Of a stretch of 60,177 bases of DNA, positions 5,928 to 46,014 are shown in pieces; the stretch's first letter is position 1; the number at the start of each line of letters is the position of its first letter. Both the position numbers and the translations under genes were made by a program. Below the pieces are notes generated by a model. It had not been told where the DNA came from, did not search any database, and saw only the letters and a list, made by a program, of their open reading frames with translations. The stretch is from the NCBI GenBank assembly GCA_014762505.1, contig JABURS010000029.1:1-60177 (forward strand), given 5' to 3'. This DNA comes from Chromatiales bacterium. GTDB lineage: Bacteria > Pseudomonadota > Gammaproteobacteria > SpSt-1174.

Positions 5928-8900
5928 GTGTCCAGCCCGCTCCGCGAACTCGAACAGCGCCTCGACAGCTGCATGCAGCGCGACCGCCATCGCCTGCGCC
6001 AGCGCCTCAAGCGGCTCGCGCGCAAGCCCGATGCGGCCGAGCAAGAGAAGCTCGCCCAGGCCATCGAGGCCTCGGCCGCCACCCGCCAGGCGCGCATCGA
6101 CAACCTGCCGCAGGTGACCTACCCGGAGGAGCTGCCGGTGAGCGGCCGGCGCGAGGCGATCCGCGAGGCGCTGGAGCAGCACCAGGTCATCATCGTCTGC
6201 GGCGAGACCGGCTCGGGCAAGACCACCCAGCTGCCCAAGATCTGCCTCGAGGCCGGGCGCGGCGTGAACGGCTACATCGGCCATACCCAGCCGCGGCGCA
6301 TCGCCGCACGCGCCGTGGCCACGCGCATCGCCGAGGAGATGAACACGCCGCTGGGCGCGCAGGTGGGCTTCAAGGTGCGCTTCTCCGAGCACGTGAGCGA
6401 GCAGGGTTACGTGAAGCTGATGACCGACGGCATCCTGCTGGCCGAGATCCAGCACGACCGCTTCCTCGATGCCTACGACACGCTCATCATCGACGAGGCC
6501 CACGAGCGCAGCCTCAACATCGACTTCCTGCTCGGCTACCTGAAGCAGCTGCTGCCGCGCCGGCCCGACCTCAAGGTGATCATCACCTCGGCCACCATCG
6601 ACCCGGAGCGCTTCGCGAAACACTTCGGCGATGCGCCCGTCATCGAGGTGTCGGGCCGCACCTACCCGGTGGAGGTGCGCTACCGCCCGCTGCACGGCGA
6701 AGACGCGGACGAACGCGACCGCGACCTGCAGCAGGCCATCCGCGAGGCGGTGGACGAGCTCGCCGAGGAGGGCCTGGGCGACATCCTCGTCTTCCTGCCG
6801 GGCGAGCGCGAGATCCGCGAGACGGCCGAGTCGCTGCGCCGGCACCACCCGAAGCACACCGAGATCCTGCCGCTGTACGCGCGGCTCTCGGCCAGCGAAC
6901 AGAACCGGGTGTTCGCCGCGCACACGGGCCGGCGCATCGTGCTCGCCACCAACGTGGCAGAGACCTCGCTCACCGTGCCCGGCATCCGCTACGTGATCGA
7001 CACGGGCCTCGCGCGCCTCTCGCGCTATTCCTGGCGCGCCAAGGTGCAGCGCCTGCCCATCGAGCCGGTCTCGCAGGCCTCGGCCAACCAGCGCAAGGGA
7101 CGTTGCGGGCGCGTGGCCGAGGGCATCTGCATCCGCCTCTATGCCGAGGACGACTTCAACAACCGCCCCGAATTCACCGACCCGGAGATCCTGCGCACCA
7201 ATCTCGCCTCGGTCATCCTGAAGATGGCGCAGCTCGGCCTGGGCGAGCCCGAGGACTTCCCCTTCGTCGAGCCGCCGGACAGCCGGCTCATCAAGGACGG
7301 CTACAACCTGCTGCACGAACTGAACGCCGTCGACGCGGCCAACCGCATCACGCCGCTGGGCAGGAAACTCGCGCAGCTGCCCATCGACCCGCGCCTGGCG
7401 CGCATGCTGCTCGCCGCACAGCAGGAAGGCTGCCTGCGCGAGGCGCTGATCATCGTCAGCGCCCTCTCCATCCAGGACCCGCGCGAACGCCCGCACGACT
7501 TCCAGCAGGCCGCGGACGAGAAGCACAAGCGCTTCGCCGACGAGCACTCGGACTTCCTCGCCTACGTGAACCTGTGGGACTACCTGCACGAGCAGATGCG
7601 CCACCTGACGCAGAACAAGCTGCGCAAGCTCTGCCGCGACGAGTTCATCTCCTACATCCGCCTGCGCGAGTGGCACGACGTGCATCGCCAGCTGCGTGCC
7701 CAGCTCAAGGACATGGGCGTGCGCGAGAACGAACAGCCGGCCGGGTACGCCCCGCTGCACCGCGCCCTGCTCACGGGACTGCTGGGCAACATCGGCTATC
7801 GCGACGAGGATCGCGAGTTCATGGGGGCACGCAACCGCAAGTTCCTGGTCTTCCCGGGCTCGGGGCTGGCGAAGAAACCGCCGAAGTGGCTCATGGCGGC
7901 GGAACTGGTGGAGACCTCGCGGCTCTTCGCCCGCACCGTGGCGAAGATCGAGCCGCAGTGGGTGGAAGAACTCGCCGCCCACCTCCTGCATCACCATTAT
8001 CACGAACCGCACTGGCAACGGCGCCGCGCGCAGGTGGGCGCCTACGACCGGCTCACGCTCTACGGGCTGGTGATCAACCCGAACCGGCGCGTGAACTACA
8101 GCCAGATCAACCCGAAGGAGGCGCGCGAGATCTTCATCCGCCACGCCCTGGTATACGGCGAGTACGAGACGAAGGCGCCCTTCTTTATACACAACCGCCA
8201 GCTCATCGAGGACGTGGAAGACCTGGAGGCCCGCTCGCGCCGCCGCGACATCATGGTGGACGAGGAGACGCTCTACGGCTTCTACGACCGGCGCCTGCCG
8301 GCCGACGTGTGCAACGGCCCCAGCTTCGAGGCCTGGCGCAAGCAGGTCGAAGGCGACGACCCGAAGGCGCTGTTCTTCACCCGTGATGAAGTGATGCAGC
8401 ACGCCGCCGCCGACGTGACGGTCGCGCAGTTCCCGGACGTGATCGACCTGGGCGGCCGGCGCGCGCCGGTGAGCTACCACTTCGAGCCGGGCAGCGACGA
8501 GGACGGCGTGACCGTGACCCTGCCGGTGGGCGGGCTCAACCAGGTGCAGCCGGCGCGCGCCGACTGGCTGGTGCCGGGGCTCATCGAGGAGAAGCTCACC
8601 GCGCTGATCCGCGGCCTGCCCAAGGCCCTGCGCCGCCACTTCGTGCCCGCCCCGGACTTCGCCCGCGCCTGCCTGGAGGCCCTGACGCCCGGCGAGCAAC
8701 GCCTCACCGAGGCGCTGACCGCCCGCCTGAAACAGATGACCGGCGTGGACGTGCCGCCCGAGGCCTGGGCCGAGGACCAGCTCGAACCCCACCTGCGCCT
8801 GCGCTACCGGGTGGTGGACGCCGGCGGCCAGACGCTGGCCACCGGCCGCGACCTCGACGCCCTGCAGGCCCGGCTGGCGGGCCGCATCGCGGAACAGTTC

Positions 8901-36545: not shown

Positions 36546-39500
36546 GTTGTGATTAGGCCTCAGGCTTCAGTCGGTTACACTATTACTCACGTTGAAGGCC
36601 ATCGCTGACATGTTGTGATTAGGCCTCAGGCTTCAGTCGGTTACACTTCAGACTCGATCGAGTCGACGCGGTCAATTGTTGTGATTAGGCCTCAGGCTTC
36701 AGTCGGTTACACTGAGAGCTTATATGTGGGAAGTCTCTTTCATGTTGTGATTAGGCCTCAGGCTTCAGTCGGTTACACTATCCAGCGCCTGCTCGGTCAC
36801 GAGAAGCGCGTTGTGATTAGGCCTCAGGCTTCAGTCGGTTACACTAAACCTGGTGGTGCAGTCTGCGTATGTTCGGTTGTGATTAGGCCTCAGGCTTCAG
36901 TCGGTTACACTGCCAACCCCGACCACCTGCTCCACCAATGGGTTGTGATTAGGCCTCAGGCTTCAGTCGGTTACACTAGAAGCTGGCAGCGAAGTTGACC
37001 GCCGCGCGTTGTGATTAGGCCTCAGGCTTCAGTCGGTTACACTGTCGCAGTAGATCGGGCGAGTGGCCTTGCTGTTGTGATTAGGCCTCAGGCTTCAGTC
37101 GGTTACACTGAGAACGAGGTAAATATGCCACTCGGAAGGGTTGTGATTAGGCCTCAGGCTTCAGTCGGTTACACTACCCCCCGGCGGCGATTACTGCTGC
37201 CATTGTTGTGATTAGGCCTCAGGCTTCAGTCGGTTACACTCGGCCGCCCGGTGGACGTGGCGGTAAACCAGTTGTGATTAGGCCTCAGGCTTCAGTCGGT
37301 TACACTCGGCGCCATCGACTACCGCGGCGCGTACAAGTTGTGATTAGGCCTCAGGCTTCAGTCGGTTACACTAGTGCAGCAAGGACGGATTGACGTACTG
37401 CAGTTGTGATTAGGCCTCAGGCTTCAGTCGGTTACACTGAGGGTCGTTGACGTTGGCCACCACCACAGGTTGTGATTAGGCCTCAGGCTTCAGTCGGTTA
37501 CACTGATACTCTCGAAGCGCTCAAGGACGAGGAAGTTGTGATTAGGCCTCAGGCTTCAGTCGGTTACACTCTTCGTCGGCCTGCACATGGGCCTGTGCCA
37601 GTTGTGATTAGGCCTCAGGCTTCAGTCGGTTACACTGGGTGTTACAACCACCCCGACTAGAGCAGCGTTGTGATTAGGCCTCAGGCTTCAGTCGGTTACA
37701 CTGACACTGGCGCGCACGGATCCAGGTCGAAAGTTGTGATTAGGCCTCAGGCTTCAGTCGGTTACACTACACCGGACCGCCGGCATGCACGCGGATCAGT
37801 TGTGATTAGGCCTCAGGCTTCAGTCGGTTACACTATTCCGCTATCGCTCGCGCCCTCCTCGTACGTTGTGATTAGGCCTCAGGCTTCAGTCGGTTACACT
37901 TCCAGGCCCTTGCTCTCGCCCCACAGCTCAGTTGTGATTAGGCCTCAGGCTTCAGTCGGTTACACTCCTGGCGCTGGATGTTGAGCTGCTTGCCGCGTTG
38001 TGATTAGGCCTCAGGCTTCAGTCGGTTACACTCACCTGGGTGAGCGCGTCATCGTTTGGCGTGTTGTGATTAGGCCTCAGGCTTCAGTCGGTTACACTAC
38101 AAGACCCCGCTGCCGCGGGGCCTCTTCAGTTGTGATTAGGCCTCAGGCTTCAGTCGGTTACACTCCGCTATCGCTTCCTCGCCTCGAAGAACACGTTGTG
38201 ATTAGGCCTCAGGCTTCAGTCGGTTACACTGTGTTGGCCAGTGCCCGGGCGCCGCCGCGGTTGTGATTAGGCCTCAGGCTTCAGTCGGTTACACTCGTCC
38301 CGCGCAGACAACCGTCACCAAGCAAGTTGTGATTAGGCCTCAGGCTTCAGTCGGTTACACTATCGAGCGCAGGCGGTTGGACCTGGCGAAGGTTGTGATT
38401 AGGCCTCAGGCTTCAGTCGGTTACACTTTTTCCTGGCTCTTTGATTCGGCCTTGTGCGTTGTGATTAGGCCTCAGGCTTCAGTCGGTTACACTGTCGGTC
38501 ATCCGCACCACCAAGCGACGTTAGTTGTGATTAGGCCTCAGGCTTCAGTCGGTTACACTCCCGCGAACAACGAGACGATGCACGCCAGCGTTGTGATTAG
38601 GCCTCAGGCTTCAGTCGGTTACACTTGACCCCTTCCTCGCCGCCCTCGAATGGCTGTTGTGATTAGGCCTCAGGCTTCAGTCGGTTACACTACCGGCACC
38701 GACGCCTACCAGGCGCAGGGAGTTGTGATTAGGCCTCAGGCTTCAGTCGGTTACACTATTGGCGGTCAGGGCCACGGACCCCAGCGCGTTGTGATTAGGC
38801 CTCAGGCTTCAGTCGGTTACACTAGGCGCTGCACGGGCGAGCGGGCGCTGAGGGTTGTGATTAGGCCTCAGGCTTCAGTCGGTTACACTCAGCAGAGCAA
38901 CATCCTCGGCACCGTGTCAGTTGTGATTAGGCCTCAGGCTTCAGTCGGTTACACTCCGAGAACGCCGGTTTTACCGACCGCGCCAGTTGTGATTAGGCCT
39001 CAGGCTTCAGTCGGTTACACTAAGTTGTCCATGTCGATGTCGGCCACTGCCGTTGTGATTAGGCCTCAGGCTTCAGTCGGTTACACTGCATAAGGCGATG
39101 TTCTCTGATGTCGGCCCGTTGTGATTAGGCCTCAGGCTTCAGTCGGTTACACTACGAGCACGAGGAGGCGCTGGGTGCGGCGTGTTGTGATTAGGCCTCA
39201 GGCTTCAGTCGGTTACACTTGGCAAGGATGCGACCAGCAGCAGCGGCGAGTTGTGATTAGGCCTCAGGCTTCAGTCGGTTACACTGTAGTCGTTGGCCAC
39301 GCTCTCGAAGGCGCGGTTGTGATTAGGCCTCAGGCTTCAGTCGGTTACACTCCTGGCGCACGGCTTCGCTGTAGGTCTGGGGTTGTGATTAGGCCTCAGG
39401 CTTCAGTCGGTTACACTTGCGGATCGCGAAAGGAGTGTGGCATGAGCGTTGTGATTAGGCCTCAGGCTTCAGTCGGTTACACTACCGAAACCCCCGCCCC

Positions 39501-39615
39501 GCCTAGCCAGCAGGTTGTGATTAGGCCTCAGGCTTCAGTCGGTTACACTCACAGAACGCGGGGAACAAATCGTCGTGTTGTTGTGATTAGGCCTCAGGCT
39601 TCAGTCGGTTACACT
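36546..39615 (+). CRISPR. Type II-C CRISPR array, 47 repeats and 46 spacers
   Basis: A 36-bp repeat starts GTTGTGATTAGGCCTCAG, continues GCTTCAGTCGG and ends TTACACT. I stepped through every unit: 47 repeats with starts 66 bp apart, except that spacers 10 and 26 are 29 nt instead of 30. All copies appear identical, including both end copies. Orientation comes from the tracrRNA: the anti-repeat on the plus strand pairs with the plus-strand repeat, so crRNAs read rightward, toward cas2. The 66-bp period equals 22 codons, which creates long false open frames repeating VIRPQASVGYT. The last repeat ends 32 bp from the cas2 stop, so array and cas operon converge. Confidence 0.99.
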
Positions 39616-39647
39616 CCTTCTGAGGCAAGTCACTGAATAGAAAGGAA

Positions 39648-39980
39648 TTAGAGCAGGATGAGCTGATCTGGCGGGGCGTCCATCGGCCGGCGGCACTTGC
39701 CATAGAACAGCTCCATGCGGGCGAACTGTTTGTCGGTGATCCTTGCGACCCGAATTTCACCGTCCGGGGGCAGGGCCTGTTTGACGCGTTTGACATGGAC
39801 GTCGGCATTCTCGTCGCTGGCACAATGACGCGCATAGACTGAATACTGCATCATCAGGAAGCCATCTTCCAGCAGGGCCTGCCGGAACTTGGTGTAGTGT
39901 CGGCGTGCCTCGGCATTGTCCGTTGGCAGGTCGAACATTACCAATACCCACACGGTCCGCAGCCCTCCAAAGACAATCAT
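39648..39980 (-). CDS. cas2: CRISPR-associated Cas2
   Basis: A 110-aa Cas2 of the type II family. The first strand RTVWVLVMFDLPTDNAEARR carries the conserved Asp, followed by YTKFRQALLEDGFLMMQYSV. It dimerises and bridges Cas1 dimers in the spacer-integration complex. The ATG at 39980 overlaps the cas1 stop (ATGA). It is the last gene of the cas operon and ends 32 bp from the last CRISPR repeat. Confidence 0.95.
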   Translation of the reverse strand: MIVFGGLRTVWVLVMFDLPTDNAEARRHYTKFRQALLEDGFLMMQYSVYARHCASDENADVHVKRVKQALPPDGEIRVARITDKQFARMELFYGKCRRPMDAPPDQLILL

Positions 39981-40873
39981 GGCTCCAGGGCGCAAGGAAA
40001 GCACCAGCCGGCCTTCAGCGTGCCTCGCTGCAGCGCCTCGCAGAACTGCTGCACGCAGCGTTGCGTGGCGTTCATGAGCGGCATCTTGTCATCCCCCAGT
40101 CGCACCGGCTGGGCCATCAGGCCCAGCAAGGCCTGTTTGCTGTCCTGATTGATTTCTATGATGTCCCGCCGGGCCAGTTCCACCACCTGGGCATCCACCA
40201 GTGGCCGAATCGGTTCCATGAGGTCATCCGCCAGGGCATAGGCGTTGTACTGGTTGTGATGGTGCAGGCCCAGGGCGGGGTGCAGGCCACTGGCGACCAC
40301 GGCGCGGGCGGTCATTGCGCGAGCGATGGCATAGCCGTAATTGAGCAGTTGGTTGATGCCGGTTTGATCCCGGTCACGCCGGAATTGTTTGCCGAACAAT
40401 GCGGGCCAGTAGTATTTGCAGGCCTGGGCCTCCACGTTGTCCGGGTCACCCGGTTTGACCTTGGAGGTCAACTGTTTCAGCCGCTGTGTGGCACTGCTCT
40501 TCAGTTCTTCTAGCAGCCACCCCTGATTGGTTAGCTTGCCCCGCACAACCTGCTGCCAGAGCCGTTTCTTGAAAGTGGGCTTGACAGCGACCTGGGCGCG
40601 CAGCACCTTGCCGTGCAAGGTGTGGCCGCTGATGGGCAAGGCCAGCAGGGCCGGGGTATGGCGCTCGTCGCAGCTCACCAGCGCGGTGTTGTGTTGGGCG
40701 CAGTGTTGCAATACCGCCTGGGTCATGGTCACGGCGGGGTGGTCCGCGATCAGCATGCCGATGTCCTCGAACGGCACGGAGGCAATCACCTCGTTGTCCC
40801 GTTCCACCAAAAGCTGGCCGTGCTTTACCTTCAGCCAGGCTGGATTGCTGATTTCGATGGTGCGCTTGATCAC
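39977..40873 (-). CDS. cas1: CRISPR-associated Cas1 integrase
   Basis: A 298-aa Cas1, the integrase that inserts new spacers. The metal ligands can be placed: E148 in DNVEAQACKYYW, a histidine of LGLHHHNQYN (about residue 205), and E220 in ADDLMEPIRPLVD. The N-terminal beta domain (WLKVKHGQLLVERDNEV) is of the type II-C kind. It starts with GTG at 40873, overlapping the cas9 stop by 4 bp (GTGA), and is coupled to cas2 downstream. Confidence 0.96.
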   Translation of the reverse strand: MIKRTIEISNPAWLKVKHGQLLVERDNEVIASVPFEDIGMLIADHPAVTMTQAVLQHCAQHNTALVSCDERHTPALLALPISGHTLHGKVLRAQVAVKPTFKKRLWQQVVRGKLTNQGWLLEELKSSATQRLKQLTSKVKPGDPDNVEAQACKYYWPALFGKQFRRDRDQTGINQLLNYGYAIARAMTARAVVASGLHPALGLHHHNQYNAYALADDLMEPIRPLVDAQVVELARRDIIEINQDSKQALLGLMAQPVRLGDDKMPLMNATQRCVQQFCEALQRGTLKAGWCFPCALEP

Positions 40874-43800
40874 GGCATGATATGCCCCATGCGATTGATT
40901 GCGAGTTTCTCTAGGCCCATTTCATTGAGTAGTGCGCTAATTGACTTGCGCACAACCCTATCACCGCTTTCCGTCGTGGCGTCAGAATGTAATCGTAGTG
41001 TGGCGCGCCCAGAGTCCTTCTCCAGTTTCTGGATGCGATAAACCCTGCCATCCTTGAGTTTCACCATATCATTTATAGCCAAGGCGGTGACGTAGGCATG
41101 TTTATCGTCCAGGTGGGTGTCCAGAATCGGCTGTTTCACGCCATTGACCTGCCGCGCCCGCTGCGCCGCCTCCAGCATGGTGACGAAGCGGGTTTTGATG
41201 CGCGGGCTTTGTATGTCACGGAAAACCTCCACGTGATGGGTGTTGCCGTAAACCATGTAGCGGAAGGGCCGTTCGTTTTTGTCGCGCACCGGCAACTGCT
41301 CCTCCGCCAGGGCATCCAGGTTGCGGAAGCTGGCCCGCTTTACCCTGACGCGCCGTATGCGAGAGCCATTGGGGTGTAACACCGGATTGTCCGGAGTGAA
41401 CGCTGCCTTGCTGTCACCCTGATGTTTGTCCAGATGGGCGCGTACTGCCTGTTGCACGGTCGGGTCGATGATAGCGTCGATGTCCTTTTTCTTGATGCTG
41501 CCGTCGAGCAACTTGCGGTACACGGTATGGACCTTGCCGTCCTTCTCCACCAGCACCCCGGAGGCGGTGTCCTCGTGCAGCGCGCCCCGTAGGCGCCAGG
41601 CTGGCACGTGGGACACGATGGTCTTTTTCACCAATGCATCGGTATCCTGTGCAAAGCTGGCCCACGGCGGGTCGATATGGATATCGTCGGGGCCATGCAC
41701 ATCGGCCCGCTGCGCCAGTTTCGCCATGCCGTGGTAGAGGCGCCGGTCCGTCAGGGCCACCACCGCCGCGTCGATCAGATGGTGGCGGTGATCGGTGCGG
41801 TTCTTCTCGTCGGCGCTGCCCAGGATTTGATGCAGGCCCCAGATATGCCGCAGCCAGGCGGTGATCTGACCCTTCACCACGGACACGTCGGTGCCCAGTG
41901 GTTTCAGATAGCCCAGCGCCACCCGGCTGATGTAGCGGGTATCGGTGAGCTGGCTGTTGATGAAATCGTCCAGGCCCTCCAGATCCCCTTGTCGCAGCAT
42001 GCGGTCGGCCTTGGCCTTGAGGGCGCGCCCCTTATCCGCCCAGGACTTGCTGCGCTGCACGATCTGCTCCCAGCGTTGTGCGTCGCCGGAGAAGGCCTGC
42101 CAGGGGGTGCGATTGCCCTTGCTGCGGTTCTCACCGGCCAGACAGATCACTTTGTTGATGTAGGAGTCGTCCAGTGACTGGCTGTACGGCAGGATGTGAT
42201 CCATCTCCACCGCATCGCTGAAGAGCTCGGTCTTGCTAATAGGCCTGCCCGAGTAGGCGCAACAGCCGTCCTGATCTTTCCACAGGCGGTACTTGATCTG
42301 ATCGTCCCGCTTGGCGCGTTGGCCGGCATGGATGGCCTGGAAGTGCTCCCGAGCCTCGTCGTTGGCCTTGGTATTGGCGGCTTGTTGTTTGTTGTAGGCG
42401 GCGAGCTGCCTGCGGTTCATCTTCAGCTCACGAGCCATTTCCAGACGAATGGCCGCCGGTTTGCCGTGCCGGCGTATGATAGCGTTGACCAGCTTGCGCA
42501 ATTCATGCAGCGCCTTGTTGACCACTGGGTTGCGGGTTTCCGGTGGCGTGGCGAGATAGTCGACGATATCGTCTTGCGCCACCTTTTGTGCCCGCATGCG
42601 ATAGCCCGCCGCCTGGAGCGCATCGGTATAGATTTTCCCCGCCTCTAGATGCGGCAGGATGCGCCGCATCGCCTTGAGGGACAAACTGCCGTGGTCGGCT
42701 TCCAGTTCCAGTACAGCGAGGCGCACCGCGTCGGTGGTGGGGAACTGCCAATGGTTGACGAGCCTGTTCTTGAGGGTCTTTTTGTTCTTTATGGTGATCA
42801 GATCGTCGACGAGCAGGGACTGCTGCCCCGGGGGCATGTGATCCCAGGCCTCGCCGATCACCCTGCGGATGGCGCAGGCGGTGCGATTACCAGACAGCTT
42901 CTTGACCTCGCTGTTCTCCAGATTGAACTTCTGGGTGCGGTCCAGCCCTACCGCCTTTCTTGCCTTGGCCCAACTCAGTTCCGGCGCATGTTCTAATGCG
43001 TTGATCAGCTTGCTGCGCTGTTCATCGGACAGCCGCAGATAGCCGCCGACATGGCCCTCAAAATATTGCAGGTTGTTGATGTCTTGCAGATAGCGAAAAC
43101 GCTGGAACTCGAGCCGGGCGCGGTGCGCCCGGTTGTATTTCGGCTCGAACTCGCACTTGCCGAGCCGGTCGGCCCGGAAGCGCAGCGGGCGTTGGTAGAA
43201 AATGATGTGTTCGATCTGGTCCCAATCCGCGTCGCTCAATACCTCGGCGAATGGCGCCGCTTGGCGTTCCCGGATAAGGGCGAACTCTTCCCGGTACATC
43301 TGCCGTGAGGTGCGCAGGTCCTCGGGGACGTGTTTGCGGTTGCGTCGGCAGGTATCACCATCCAGGGAAGCCAGATACTCACCGAGAGTCCGCTTGTTGG
43401 CCCGGTGGATGGCCTGGGCCAGCTGGGCAATCGAATGCTTGAAGGCGCTTTCTTCAGCATCGAGGTCGCCCTTTTCGTCCTGGTCCAACTCTTCGATCAG
43501 ATCGGCGGCGTCCGGATCGTCGATCAATTCCTTGAGTAGCGTCTTTCGGTTGCTCTGAAACCCACGCCTCTGCGCTAGATGCAACAAAATCCGGCCTAGT
43601 TCATGCTTGGCCAAGTCGTCATCAAGCGCCTTGGCCCGTAGTTGGTAGGGATCCCCCAATGTGTTGAGCACCTTCTCCCTTTGGGCGGAATCGCGAACGG
43701 CTTCCGGCAACAAGTCCTTCTTGATGAGGAAGTTCTCCAGCCGCTGACGACGGCGCGCACGACGCTCGATCAAGCGCCGCGCCAGTCGCTTGCCGCGCCG

Positions 43801-43968
43801 CTTTGCGTTCTTGGGTGTCGGGGTTTTATCCTCCACGGCACGAGGGAAAATGCGAACCCCGCCGTCTAGGTATCCAGCAGGTTTGCCGTCGCCGTCCAGC
43901 GATAACAGCGCCCAGCCTATGGAGTTGGTGCCAAGATCCAGGCCCATAATGTAGTTTGCAGTCTGCAA
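40870..43968 (-). CDS. cas9: Compact type II-C Cas9 nuclease
   Basis: A 1032-aa Cas9, shorter than the Neisseria enzyme (1082) and longer than the Campylobacter one (984). RuvC-I is MGLDLGTNSIGWALL with D11. The arginine-rich bridge helix is RRLIERRARRRQRLENF. RuvC-II is IRLEMARELKMNRRQ with E510. The HNH domain has CCAYSGRPI, EMDHILPYSQ with H591 and ENRSKGN with N614. RuvC-III is HHLIDAAVVAL with H730 and D733. All catalytic positions known from SpCas9 are therefore present, and the enzyme should cut both strands. The start is TTG at 43968 with AAGGAG 7 nt upstream. No csn2 or cas4 is present, defining subtype II-C. The C-terminal PAM-interacting domain is complete, but its PAM cannot be read from sequence. 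Confidence 0.97.
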   Translation of the reverse strand: MQTANYIMGLDLGTNSIGWALLSLDGDGKPAGYLDGGVRIFPRAVEDKTPTPKNAKRRGKRLARRLIERRARRRQRLENFLIKKDLLPEAVRDSAQREKVLNTLGDPYQLRAKALDDDLAKHELGRILLHLAQRRGFQSNRKTLLKELIDDPDAADLIEELDQDEKGDLDAEESAFKHSIAQLAQAIHRANKRTLGEYLASLDGDTCRRNRKHVPEDLRTSRQMYREEFALIRERQAAPFAEVLSDADWDQIEHIIFYQRPLRFRADRLGKCEFEPKYNRAHRARLEFQRFRYLQDINNLQYFEGHVGGYLRLSDEQRSKLINALEHAPELSWAKARKAVGLDRTQKFNLENSEVKKLSGNRTACAIRRVIGEAWDHMPPGQQSLLVDDLITIKNKKTLKNRLVNHWQFPTTDAVRLAVLELEADHGSLSLKAMRRILPHLEAGKIYTDALQAAGYRMRAQKVAQDDIVDYLATPPETRNPVVNKALHELRKLVNAIIRRHGKPAAIRLEMARELKMNRRQLAAYNKQQAANTKANDEAREHFQAIHAGQRAKRDDQIKYRLWKDQDGCCAYSGRPISKTELFSDAVEMDHILPYSQSLDDSYINKVICLAGENRSKGNRTPWQAFSGDAQRWEQIVQRSKSWADKGRALKAKADRMLRQGDLEGLDDFINSQLTDTRYISRVALGYLKPLGTDVSVVKGQITAWLRHIWGLHQILGSADEKNRTDHRHHLIDAAVVALTDRRLYHGMAKLAQRADVHGPDDIHIDPPWASFAQDTDALVKKTIVSHVPAWRLRGALHEDTASGVLVEKDGKVHTVYRKLLDGSIKKKDIDAIIDPTVQQAVRAHLDKHQGDSKAAFTPDNPVLHPNGSRIRRVRVKRASFRNLDALAEEQLPVRDKNERPFRYMVYGNTHHVEVFRDIQSPRIKTRFVTMLEAAQRARQVNGVKQPILDTHLDDKHAYVTALAINDMVKLKDGRVYRIQKLEKDSGRATLRLHSDATTESGDRVVRKSISALLNEMGLEKLAINRMGHIMP

Positions 43969-44048
43969 AGTGGCTCTCCTTATGGTCGACTATTCGCTAG
44001 TCGCGTCCAGGCGGCGGACGGGAAATATTCTGCCACCCTATTTGCGCG

Positions 44049-44078
44049 TTAATCTTGTCCGGCGATTATTCATATGCT
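44049..44078 (+). promoter_or_regulatory. Candidate tracrRNA promoter
   Basis: TTAATC (44049-44054) and TATGCT (44073-44078) are separated by 18 bp, placing the RNA start near 44085, just before the anti-repeat. The -35 is weak. Confidence 0.45.
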
Positions 44079-44084
44079 AGGTTT

Positions 44085-44197
44085 TCATTGAGCGTAACCG
44101 ACTGAAGCCTGAGAGTTCTTTTCATACCAAGAGATGAATTTCTCGCAGGCACCACCGGTAACGGTGACCAACGGCCTCCCAGCGGGGCCGTTTTTTA
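44085..44197 (+). ncRNA. tracrRNA of the type II-C system
   Basis: The anti-repeat 44094-44113 is a perfect 20-nt complement of repeat positions 14-33. After an internal loop of about 7 by 9 nt, CATACC (44123-44128) pairs with the repeat's first bases GUUGUG at five of six positions, one of them G-U, forming the lower stem next to the spacer. A short hairpin GAGA/TCTC (44131-44144), a second CACCG-GTAA-CGGTG (44153-44166) and a terminator AACGGCC/GGCCGTT with a T-tract (44170-44196) follow. The layout matches the Neisseria II-C tracrRNA. It is transcribed divergently from cas9. The 5' end is estimated from the promoter-like element; the 3' end is set by the terminator. Confidence 0.9.
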
Positions 44198-44246
44198 TTT
44201 TCACACCGAAAAACAAGAAGGCCATCCCTTTCGTGACGCCCGAAAC

Positions 44247-44275
44247 GATGATGCCCCGGAATCCGGGGCATCATC
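44247..44275. terminator. Hairpin after ggt
   Basis: GATGATGCCCCGG (44247-44259) pairs perfectly with CCGGGGCATCATC (44263-44275), loop AAT, 12 bp beyond the ggt stop. The T-run on the minus strand is short (GTTTC). Confidence 0.65.
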
Positions 44276-44286
44276 AAGTTTGACAC

Positions 44287-46014
44287 TCAGCGCACTTCGG
44301 CCTTCCCAACCCCTCGCCCATCCGACGCAGCCTCCACCCGCTGCTGCTCCCGGTCCCAGATCACCACGTGCATGTTGCCGTAGGAGGCATCCAGCGGCTG
44401 CAACTCATGCCCGCGCGACTGCAGCTCCAGCTGCAGTGCATCGTCGAAGGCCAGCGGTTCGAACTGGATGGCGTCTGGCAGGAACTGGTGGTGGAAGCGG
44501 CGGCGCTCGACCATGGCCCTGGCATCCCTGCCCTCGCTGAACTCCAGCGCGGCGAGCAGCACCATGGAGATGATGCGGCTGCCGCCGGGGGTGCCGACCA
44601 CGGCGATGCGTTCGCCGTCATCGAGGAAAGTTGGGGTCATGCTGGAGAGCATGCGCTTGCCGGGTTCGATGGCGTTGGCCTCCGCGCCGACCAGGCCGTA
44701 GACGTTGGGCACGCCGGGCTTGGCGGAGAAGTCGTCCATCTCATCATTCAGCAGCACGCCGGTGCCGGGCACCACCCACGCACTACCAAACGGGTAGTTG
44801 ATGGAGAGCGTGGCGGAGACGCGGTTGCCGTCCTGGTCGATGATAGAGAAGTGGGTGGTGTCGTTGCCCTTGGGCGTGGTGTCCACCACGCCGGGCAGCA
44901 GGGCGCTGGGGGTGGTGCGATCCAGCCGGATGCCGGCGCGCAGGCCGGCGGCGTACTGCGGGTGGGTGAGGCGGCTCAGGGGCATGTCCACGTAGTCGGG
45001 GTCGCCCAGGTATTCGGCGCGGTCGCGGTAGGCGCGGCGCATGGCCTCGACGATGACGTGGGTGCGGGTGGCCTCGTCCATGGCGGCCAGATCAAAGCCT
45101 TCGAGGATGTTCAGCGCCTCGACCAGCACCACACCGCCGGAGGACGGCGGGGCGGCGGCGGTGACGGTGATGCCGCGGTACTCGCCGTGGATGGGTGTGC
45201 GCTCGACGATCTCGTATTCGGCCAGGTCCTCGAGCGACCAGATGCCGCCGCCGGCGCGCACGCCGTTGACGAGTCTTTCCGCGACCTCGCCCTTGTAGAA
45301 GCCGTCGCGGCCCTTCTCGGCCAAGACGCGCAGGGTGGCGGCGAGCTCGAGCTGGCGGATGACGGTGCCTTCCTCGGGCACGTTGGCACCGCGCAGGAAG
45401 AGCCGGGTGGCGTCCGCCGAGGCGCGCAGGGCCTCGAGGCGGAAGCCGGCCATGCGCCGGTAGTGGGCGTCGACCGCGAAGCCCTCCTCGGCCAGGCGGA
45501 TCGCCGGGGCGAGACTTTGGCTCAACGGGAGCTTGCCGTAGGTCCCGGCCAGGTGGGCGAGCCCGCCGCGCTCGCCCGGGATGCCGGCGGCCAGCGGGCC
45601 GTCCACCGAGGCCTGCGGGATCACCTCGCCCCTGGCGTCCAGGTACATGTCGCGGTGGGCGGCGAGCGGGGCGCGCTCGCGACCGTCGATCATGGTGGTG
45701 AAATCGTCCTCGGCGCGGTGGATGAGCCAGAACCCGCCTCCGCCGATGCCGGAGCTGTAGGGCTCGACCACGGCGAGCGCGGCGCTCACGGCCACGGCGG
45801 CATCGAAGGCGTTGCCGCCGGCCTCCAGGATCTCGTGCCCGGCCGCGGTGGCCGCCGGGTGTGCGCTGGCAATGGCCGCGCGGCCCGGGCCGTCCGCCGC
45901 CTGTGCGGCGAGGCTGAACAGGACCAGGCAGAGGGCGAGCCCGCGAAGCAGGCGGCGTGAAAGCGAAAAGGCCCCGTGACGGGGCCTTTTCGTGTTCTGT
46001 TGCTGCGCGTACAT
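44287..46014 (-). CDS. ggt: Gamma-glutamyltransferase
   Basis: A 575-aa precursor of periplasmic gamma-glutamyltranspeptidase, which cleaves glutathione and other gamma-glutamyl compounds. It has an N-terminal signal peptide (SRRLLRGLALCLVLFSLAAQA), GIGGGGFWLIH, IDGRERAP and the autoprocessing site KGNDTTHFSIIDQDGN, whose first Thr of TTHFS becomes the N-terminal nucleophile of the small subunit. Later MLSSMTPTFL and GTPGGSRIISM bind the glutamyl group. The ATG at 46014 was chosen, but an intrinsic terminator for the upstream ferredoxin gene lies within codons 9-17, so the true start or expression mode is uncertain. No ATG lies between that hairpin and the signal peptide core. Confidence 0.9.
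   Translation of the reverse strand: MYAQQQNTKRPRHGAFSLSRRLLRGLALCLVLFSLAAQAADGPGRAAIASAHPAATAAGHEILEAGGNAFDAAVAVSAALAVVEPYSSGIGGGGFWLIHRAEDDFTTMIDGRERAPLAAHRDMYLDARGEVIPQASVDGPLAAGIPGERGGLAHLAGTYGKLPLSQSLAPAIRLAEEGFAVDAHYRRMAGFRLEALRASADATRLFLRGANVPEEGTVIRQLELAATLRVLAEKGRDGFYKGEVAERLVNGVRAGGGIWSLEDLAEYEIVERTPIHGEYRGITVTAAAPPSSGGVVLVEALNILEGFDLAAMDEATRTHVIVEAMRRAYRDRAEYLGDPDYVDMPLSRLTHPQYAAGLRAGIRLDRTTPSALLPGVVDTTPKGNDTTHFSIIDQDGNRVSATLSINYPFGSAWVVPGTGVLLNDEMDDFSAKPGVPNVYGLVGAEANAIEPGKRMLSSMTPTFLDDGERIAVVGTPGGSRIISMVLLAALEFSEGRDARAMVERRRFHHQFLPDAIQFEPLAFDDALQLELQSRGHELQPLDASYGNMHVVIWDREQQRVEAASDGRGVGKAEVR
45966..45990 (-). terminator. Terminator after the ferredoxin gene, inside the ggt 5' end
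   Basis: AAAAGGCCCCG and CGGGGCCTTTT form an 11-bp stem with a 3-nt loop; on the minus strand it ends in TTTT followed by CGC. It lies 36 bp after the ferredoxin stop and within the predicted signal-peptide codons of ggt. Confidence 0.75.

What the first reader, a model, noticed from the sequence alone, without database searches (positions are those of the whole stretch)
44049..44197. tracrRNA found divergently upstream of cas9, with a 20-bp perfect upper stem
The anti-repeat matches repeat positions 14-33 exactly, and a second short match restores the lower stem beside the spacer across a 7-by-9 internal loop. Two small hairpins and a T-tailed terminator follow. This gives the crRNA strand without experiment and predicts the full dual-RNA. 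The internal loop is larger than in the Streptococcus duplex and resembles the Neisseria layout.
Basis: partly seen in the sequence, partly recalled or inferred. Interest (0 to 1): 0.72.

Follow-up and report, generated by a model that had tools for sequence, protein, structure and literature searches.

The report
Ordinary Cas9 tracrRNA, type II-C locus
The stretch encodes the helper RNA (tracrRNA) that a bacterial Cas9 immune system needs to use its guide RNAs; it looks intact and has relatives with the same layout, so it is a good annotation of a known kind of system rather than a surprise.

Summary
The tracrRNA call is right. An exact 20-nt anti-repeat lies at 44094-44113 (+), 125 bp from the cas9 start codon and divergent from it; chance is excluded. 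Two hairpins and a T-tailed terminator follow. Beside it lie intact cas9-cas1-cas2 and 47 identical 36-nt repeats: a type II-C locus. Twenty related tracrRNAs align; 19 of 20 lie divergently beside cas9 or its remnant. Hairpins covary, and 14 of 14 anti-repeats fit their own repeat best, ties included.

Corrections: the 7x9 internal loop is too large; co-folding gives a 5-bp lower stem, a 2x2 U-U loop, four more pairs and two bulges. The transcript probably starts near 44090, not 44049; the promoter is weak and unproven.

Extra lead: in 18 of 21 tracrRNAs the free RNA is predicted to close on itself, AGGC after hairpin 1 pairing with the anti-repeat; covariation for it is weak.

In passing: one of 46 spacers matches the host chromosome perfectly. 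No PAM was obtained. Verdict: new member of a known kind, low interest.

The parts
44091..44197 (+). predicted tracrRNA (5' end uncertain by several bases, near 44090)
   Evidence: anti-repeat, hairpins, terminator, 20 aligned relatives
44091..44113 (+). anti-repeat; 44094-44113 exact complement of repeat 14-33, extended to repeat 36 with one mismatch
44114..44121 (+). short internal loop region: G44115, U44117, C44118, U44119 pair with repeat 13-10; 44120-44121 form a 2x2 U-U loop
   Evidence: RNAcofold
44122..44128 (+). lower-stem strand UCAUACC; 44122-44126 pair with repeat 7-3, C44127 faces repeat U2
44131..44144 (+). hairpin 1 (nexus-like)
   Evidence: covariation in 3 of 5 pairs
44146..44150 (+). 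CAGGC, complementary to anti-repeat 44107-44111 GCCUG; possible closing helix of the free RNA
   Evidence: weak covariation
44153..44166 (+). hairpin 2
   Evidence: covariation in 5 of 5 pairs
44170..44196 (+). intrinsic terminator with T run
44055..44083 (+). possible promoter, TTGTCC (44055-44060) and TAGGTT (44078-44083); weak
   Evidence: by position against relatives only; no better than shuffles in the window
40870..43968 (-). cas9, 1032 aa, TTG start as listed
   Evidence: TIGR01865 644.6 bits; HNH and RuvC motifs align with solved Cas9s
39977..40873 (-). cas1, type II
   Evidence: TIGR03639 286.5 bits
39648..40004 (-). cas2
   Evidence: TIGR01573 79.2 bits
36546..39615 (+). CRISPR array, 47 identical 36-nt repeats, 46 spacers of 29-30 nt; crRNA strand inferred to be +

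Best explanation
44091-44197 (+) encodes the tracrRNA of a complete type II-C CRISPR-Cas9 system. It is transcribed away from cas9; its 5' part pairs with the repeat part of pre-crRNA transcribed from the + strand of the array; the duplex together with hairpins 1 and 2 is what Cas9 binds, so that the spacer can guide cutting of invading DNA. Shown here: sequence, layout, conservation, covariation. Inferred from known type II systems: transcription, RNase III trimming, Cas9 loading, DNA cutting. The PAM is unknown.
For: Exact 20-nt anti-repeat, 0 in 100 shuffles. Co-fold gain 37.5 kcal/mol against 11.6 on average and at most 20.3 for 200 shuffled repeats. Terminator on the + strand. Intact cas9, cas1, cas2. 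Of 20 aligned relatives, 19 lie divergently beside cas9 or its remnant. The model finds it in 6 of 369 genomes of the class, exactly the six with a close Cas9, and in 7 new genomes of 398 in the phylum. Covariation score 0.463 against 0.245 in shuffles, 0 of 500 as high. 14 of 14 anti-repeats fit their own repeat best, ties included.
Against: No expression data. No sigma-70 promoter above threshold, and the best site is no better than shuffled sequence. No Rfam match. No protospacer or PAM found. The six class genomes include five whose tracrRNAs built the model besides the window, so those hits are partly by construction; only the absence elsewhere and the phylum hits are independent.
Confidence: 0.94

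Rival explanations
1. The tracrRNA is transcribed from the minus strand, and the crRNAs from the minus strand of the array.
For: No strong promoter is visible on the plus strand.
Against: The only terminator-like site in 43900-44300 is on the plus strand. The sequence 3' of the anti-repeat on the plus strand, not on the other side, is what is conserved with two covarying hairpins in relatives. The minus-strand reading would run into the cas9 start region.
Confidence: 0.02
2. A stray, decayed repeat copy beside cas9 with no function.
For: Single repeat-like copies outside arrays occur; in two relatives the tracrRNA stands beside a broken or missing cas9.
Against: It matches the own repeat at 22 of 23 positions, better than any other repeat in the set, and is followed by conserved covarying hairpins and a terminator; cas9 is intact.
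Confidence: 0.02
3. A regulatory small RNA of the scaRNA kind rather than the tracrRNA.
For: CRISPR-associated scaRNAs are reported for type II systems (PMC13431127, search listing and start of abstract only).
Against: The anti-repeat is nearly full length and tuned to the own repeat; no second anti-repeat-like stretch was found in the 15 kb searched, the next best scoring 17 against 41, so this is the only tracrRNA candidate there.
Confidence: 0.01

Closest known systems
Type II-C CRISPR-Cas9 of Neisseria meningitidis / Pasteurella multocida (layout in PMC3936727, passages)
   Same: cas9-cas1-cas2 only, array read opposite to the cas genes, tracrRNA beside cas9; solved Cas9s match at E down to 8.6e-89, several of them Neisseria and Geobacillus enzymes by entry numbers I recall.
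   Different: Sequence of repeat and tracrRNA differs; the duplex of Neisseria was not compared here.
DfCas9 and PpCas9 type II-C systems (PMC7708072, passages)
   Same: tracrRNA upstream of the cas genes, array transcribed opposite to them, Cas9 of 1055-1079 aa.
   Different: Those were tested by experiment and have PAMs; this one has neither.
Unannotated relatives found here (20 tracrRNAs beside Cas9 at 31-48% identity)
   Same: Similar repeats starting GTTGTG, tracrRNA divergent beside cas9, same hairpin order; the closest Cas9s are 43-48% identical.
   Different: Lower stem either 5 bp with C facing U2 (window and 7 others of 14) or 7 bp and more (5 of 14); five of family f207 and L043 score low with the model (29.6-41.3 bits).
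tracrRNA clusters of the 79-ortholog Cas9 catalogue (PMC7606464, passages)
   Different: Which cluster it would join was not tested; their sequences are in supplements not read.

Membership tests
Type II CRISPR-Cas | Cas9 with HNH and split RuvC | tested here: met
   TIGR01865 644.6 bits over a cut-off of 100; HNH_4 and RuvC_III; the aspartate and histidine that are conserved in solved Cas9s are present in the alignment
Type II CRISPR-Cas | cas1 and cas2 of the type II kind | tested here: met
   cas1_NMENI 286.5 bits over 120; Cas1_II and Cas2_II best in PADLOC
Type II CRISPR-Cas | tracrRNA with anti-repeat | tested here: met
Type II-C | no csn2 and no cas4 in the locus | tested here: met
   none among the 7 ORFs tested beyond the array nor in the gene beside the tracrRNA; the rest of the genome was not searched for them
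Type II-C | array transcribed opposite to the cas genes | tested here: inconclusive
   follows from the tracrRNA strand; no RNA data
Type II CRISPR-Cas | co-processing by RNase III and DNA cutting with a PAM | not testable with these tools
   needs experiment; no protospacers found
A described Rfam family | match above a family's gathering score | tested here: not met
   0 matches in the whole window

The most novel reading that the evidence does not exclude
In this clade the free tracrRNA folds into a closed form: the AGGC just after hairpin 1 pairs with the GCCU of the anti-repeat and hides part of it until a crRNA repeat invades. That would be a built-in switch or timing step in Cas9 guide assembly.
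Probability: 0.2. Interest if true: 0.45.

Novelty: new member of a known kind. Interest (0 to 1): 0.17.

Why it matters
It completes the annotation of a Cas9 system whose nearest relatives found here are only 43-48% identical, so that its guide RNA can be built and its PAM measured. It also gives a covariance model for a tracrRNA group with no Rfam match in this window. If the closed fold were real, it would make a step of guide-RNA assembly testable.

Tried and rejected
Protospacers and PAM: the whole array against phages gave four weak hits (E 0.9 to 3), the best 27 of 30 letters in Chromohalobacter phage YPCBV-1; not trusted. Against plasmids: one 24-letter hit, E 0.8. Ends of 5 of the 46 spacers in viral contigs: 0 of 5 found. 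The repeat in viral contigs: 0. In 340 class genomes the hits outside arrays, apart from the self match, have 4-5 mismatches or cover repeat letters. So no PAM is given.

Genomes of the same genus and order: of 3 genomes only the window's own has this Cas9.

Closing helix in more distant Cas9 loci: six plasmid loci were fetched; a clear anti-repeat was found in 1 of them (L131). L131, L044 and L045 were folded and show no like helix that I would count; the other loci were not folded.

Cas9 tree: rough only. The script took the longest frame, which was wrong for L002 and perhaps for L013; no argument rests on it.

Literature: listings of searches; passages of four papers. A closed free tracrRNA was not found in the searches; most subscription papers are not held. 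From memory and unchecked: the Neisseria tracrRNA may have a like complementarity.

Full report
What is there. The window holds a complete small CRISPR-Cas9 locus. On the minus strand are cas9 (40870-43968, 1032 aa), cas1 (39977-40873) and cas2 (39648-40004), identified by curated models. Beyond cas2 lies an array of 47 identical 36-nt repeats with 46 spacers of 29-30 nt. Neighbours are a MOSC-domain protein on one side and gamma-glutamyltransferase on the other. It is the only cas9 in the 2.77-Mb genome. Of 3 genomes held from the order, only the window's own has a match to this Cas9.

The observation. The anti-repeat at 44094-44113 is an exact reverse complement of repeat positions 14-33. 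With up to 3 mismatches allowed the window has 48 matches: 47 repeats and this one; 100 shuffles gave none. Two more pairs extend it to repeat position 36 across one mismatch. Folding the repeat with the tracrRNA gains 37.5 kcal/mol over the free tracrRNA; 200 shuffled repeats gain 11.6 on average and at most 20.3. Hairpins at 44131-44144 and 44153-44166 and a terminator at 44170-44196 follow; it is the only terminator-like site on either strand of 43900-44300.

Correction of the duplex. RNAcofold gives repeat 3-7 paired with 44122-44126, a 2x2 U-U loop, then A10-U, G11-C, G12-U, C13-G with two single-base bulges, then the long upper stem. Of 14 systems with a known repeat, the window included, the lower stem is 5 bp with a C facing repeat U2 in 8, 7 bp or more with an A there in 5, and irregular in 1 (L043); 10 of the 13 relatives have a 3-nt loop on the repeat side closed by a G11-C pair. 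So the loop is small. Whether the Neisseria duplex differs was not tested.

Relatives. Cas9 relatives came from genome contigs (4 loci), from 369 genomes of the class (29 with any hit; 6 near full length at 45% identity or more, the window's own included) and from related orders. Eleven tracrRNAs made a covariance model. In the same 369 genomes it found 6, exactly the six with the close Cas9; these six tracrRNAs were in the model, so only the absence from the other 363 is new information. In 398 genomes of the phylum it found 8: the window's own and 7 not used for the model, all in one family, f207; one of these contigs (G729) is the same as L004. With two cas9-remnant loci, L003 and the weak L043 (E 0.00014), 21 tracrRNAs were aligned. 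Dropped before that: copies of the same locus (L004, L080, L012) and all weaker hits, most of which are the arrays themselves. Of the 20 relatives, 19 lie divergently beside cas9 or its remnant; for the last (L059, genome G406) tblastn found no cas9 at 1e-5, only a weak fragment with stops.

Covariation and tuning. In the 11-sequence alignment hairpin 1 has changes on both sides in 3 of 5 pairs and hairpin 2 in 5 of 5; the whole 15-pair structure, closing helix included, scores 0.463 for covariation against 0.245 in shuffles (0 of 500 as high) and at most 0.143 when slid. Each of 14 anti-repeats fits its own repeat at least as well as any other repeat in the set, ties included.

Promoter. The scan finds none, and the window's best-scoring site is no better than shuffled sequence. 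Several relatives carry a TTG-like box about 35 nt and a TATAAT-like box 5-12 nt before the anti-repeat; by position the window would have TTGTCC (44055-44060) and TAGGTT (44078-44083), placing the start near 44090. This is inference.

Mechanism. As in other type II systems (established knowledge; layout passages in PMC3936727 and PMC7708072), the tracrRNA would pair with the repeats of a + strand pre-crRNA, the duplex would be trimmed and Cas9 loaded. Sequence, layout and conservation are shown here; expression, processing, cutting and the PAM are not.

The extra feature. In 18 of 21 tracrRNAs at least 4 anti-repeat positions are predicted (probability over 0.8; no crRNA, no terminator) to pair with the segment just 3' of hairpin 1; shuffling that segment gives about 5 expected (pair probabilities). 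The core is GCCU with AGGC. Against it: the rows are related, not independent; the fifth pair varies on both sides (A-U 10, G-C 3) but is unpaired in 8 of 21; the covariation score of this helix alone is reached by 30 of 500 shuffles; AGGC is also common in the repeats, so the conservation may have other causes; L043 lacks it. I did not find it described (searches, a partial library). It is a lead, at about 0.2.

Verdict. A correct and useful annotation of a known kind of element; the internal-loop claim should be dropped. Low interest.

Noticed in passing
39352-39381 (spacer 43 of 46); target G000:C37:60033-60062 = L114 1501-1530: A self-targeting spacer: 30 of 30 letters match the host's own chromosome inside a predicted 395-aa gene with weak TPR matches; 3' flank CGCTGGCGTG. 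With an intact cas9 this suggests a wrong PAM, an inhibitor or an inactive system.
   Followed up: partly
L093 (G409) 6678-6760; L094 (G406) 6439-6519: tracrRNA-like sequence survives (71.6 and 66.4 bits) where cas9 is broken into fragments with stop codons or nearly gone.
   Followed up: partly
L003 and L004: Identical Cas9 proteins and tracrRNAs on contigs of two MAGs from sample S012 that are named as different phyla or classes (Thiomicrorhabdus and Ghiorsea); a binning error or very recent transfer.
   Followed up: no
alignment A4, lower stem and the base after hairpin 1: In most rows CAUACC in the lower stem goes with UAGGC after hairpin 1, and CAUAAC with CAGG; the window (CAUACC with CAGGC) breaks the rule. 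Unexplained.
   Followed up: no
36615-39636: The repeats are open in one frame, so ORF lists show false genes with the repeated peptide VVIRPQASVGYT.
   Followed up: yes
repeat positions 31-36 in every repeat: The repeat ends in TACACT (TACAAT in several relatives), like a -10 box; in Neisseria, from memory, each repeat carries its own crRNA promoter. Not tested here.
   Followed up: no
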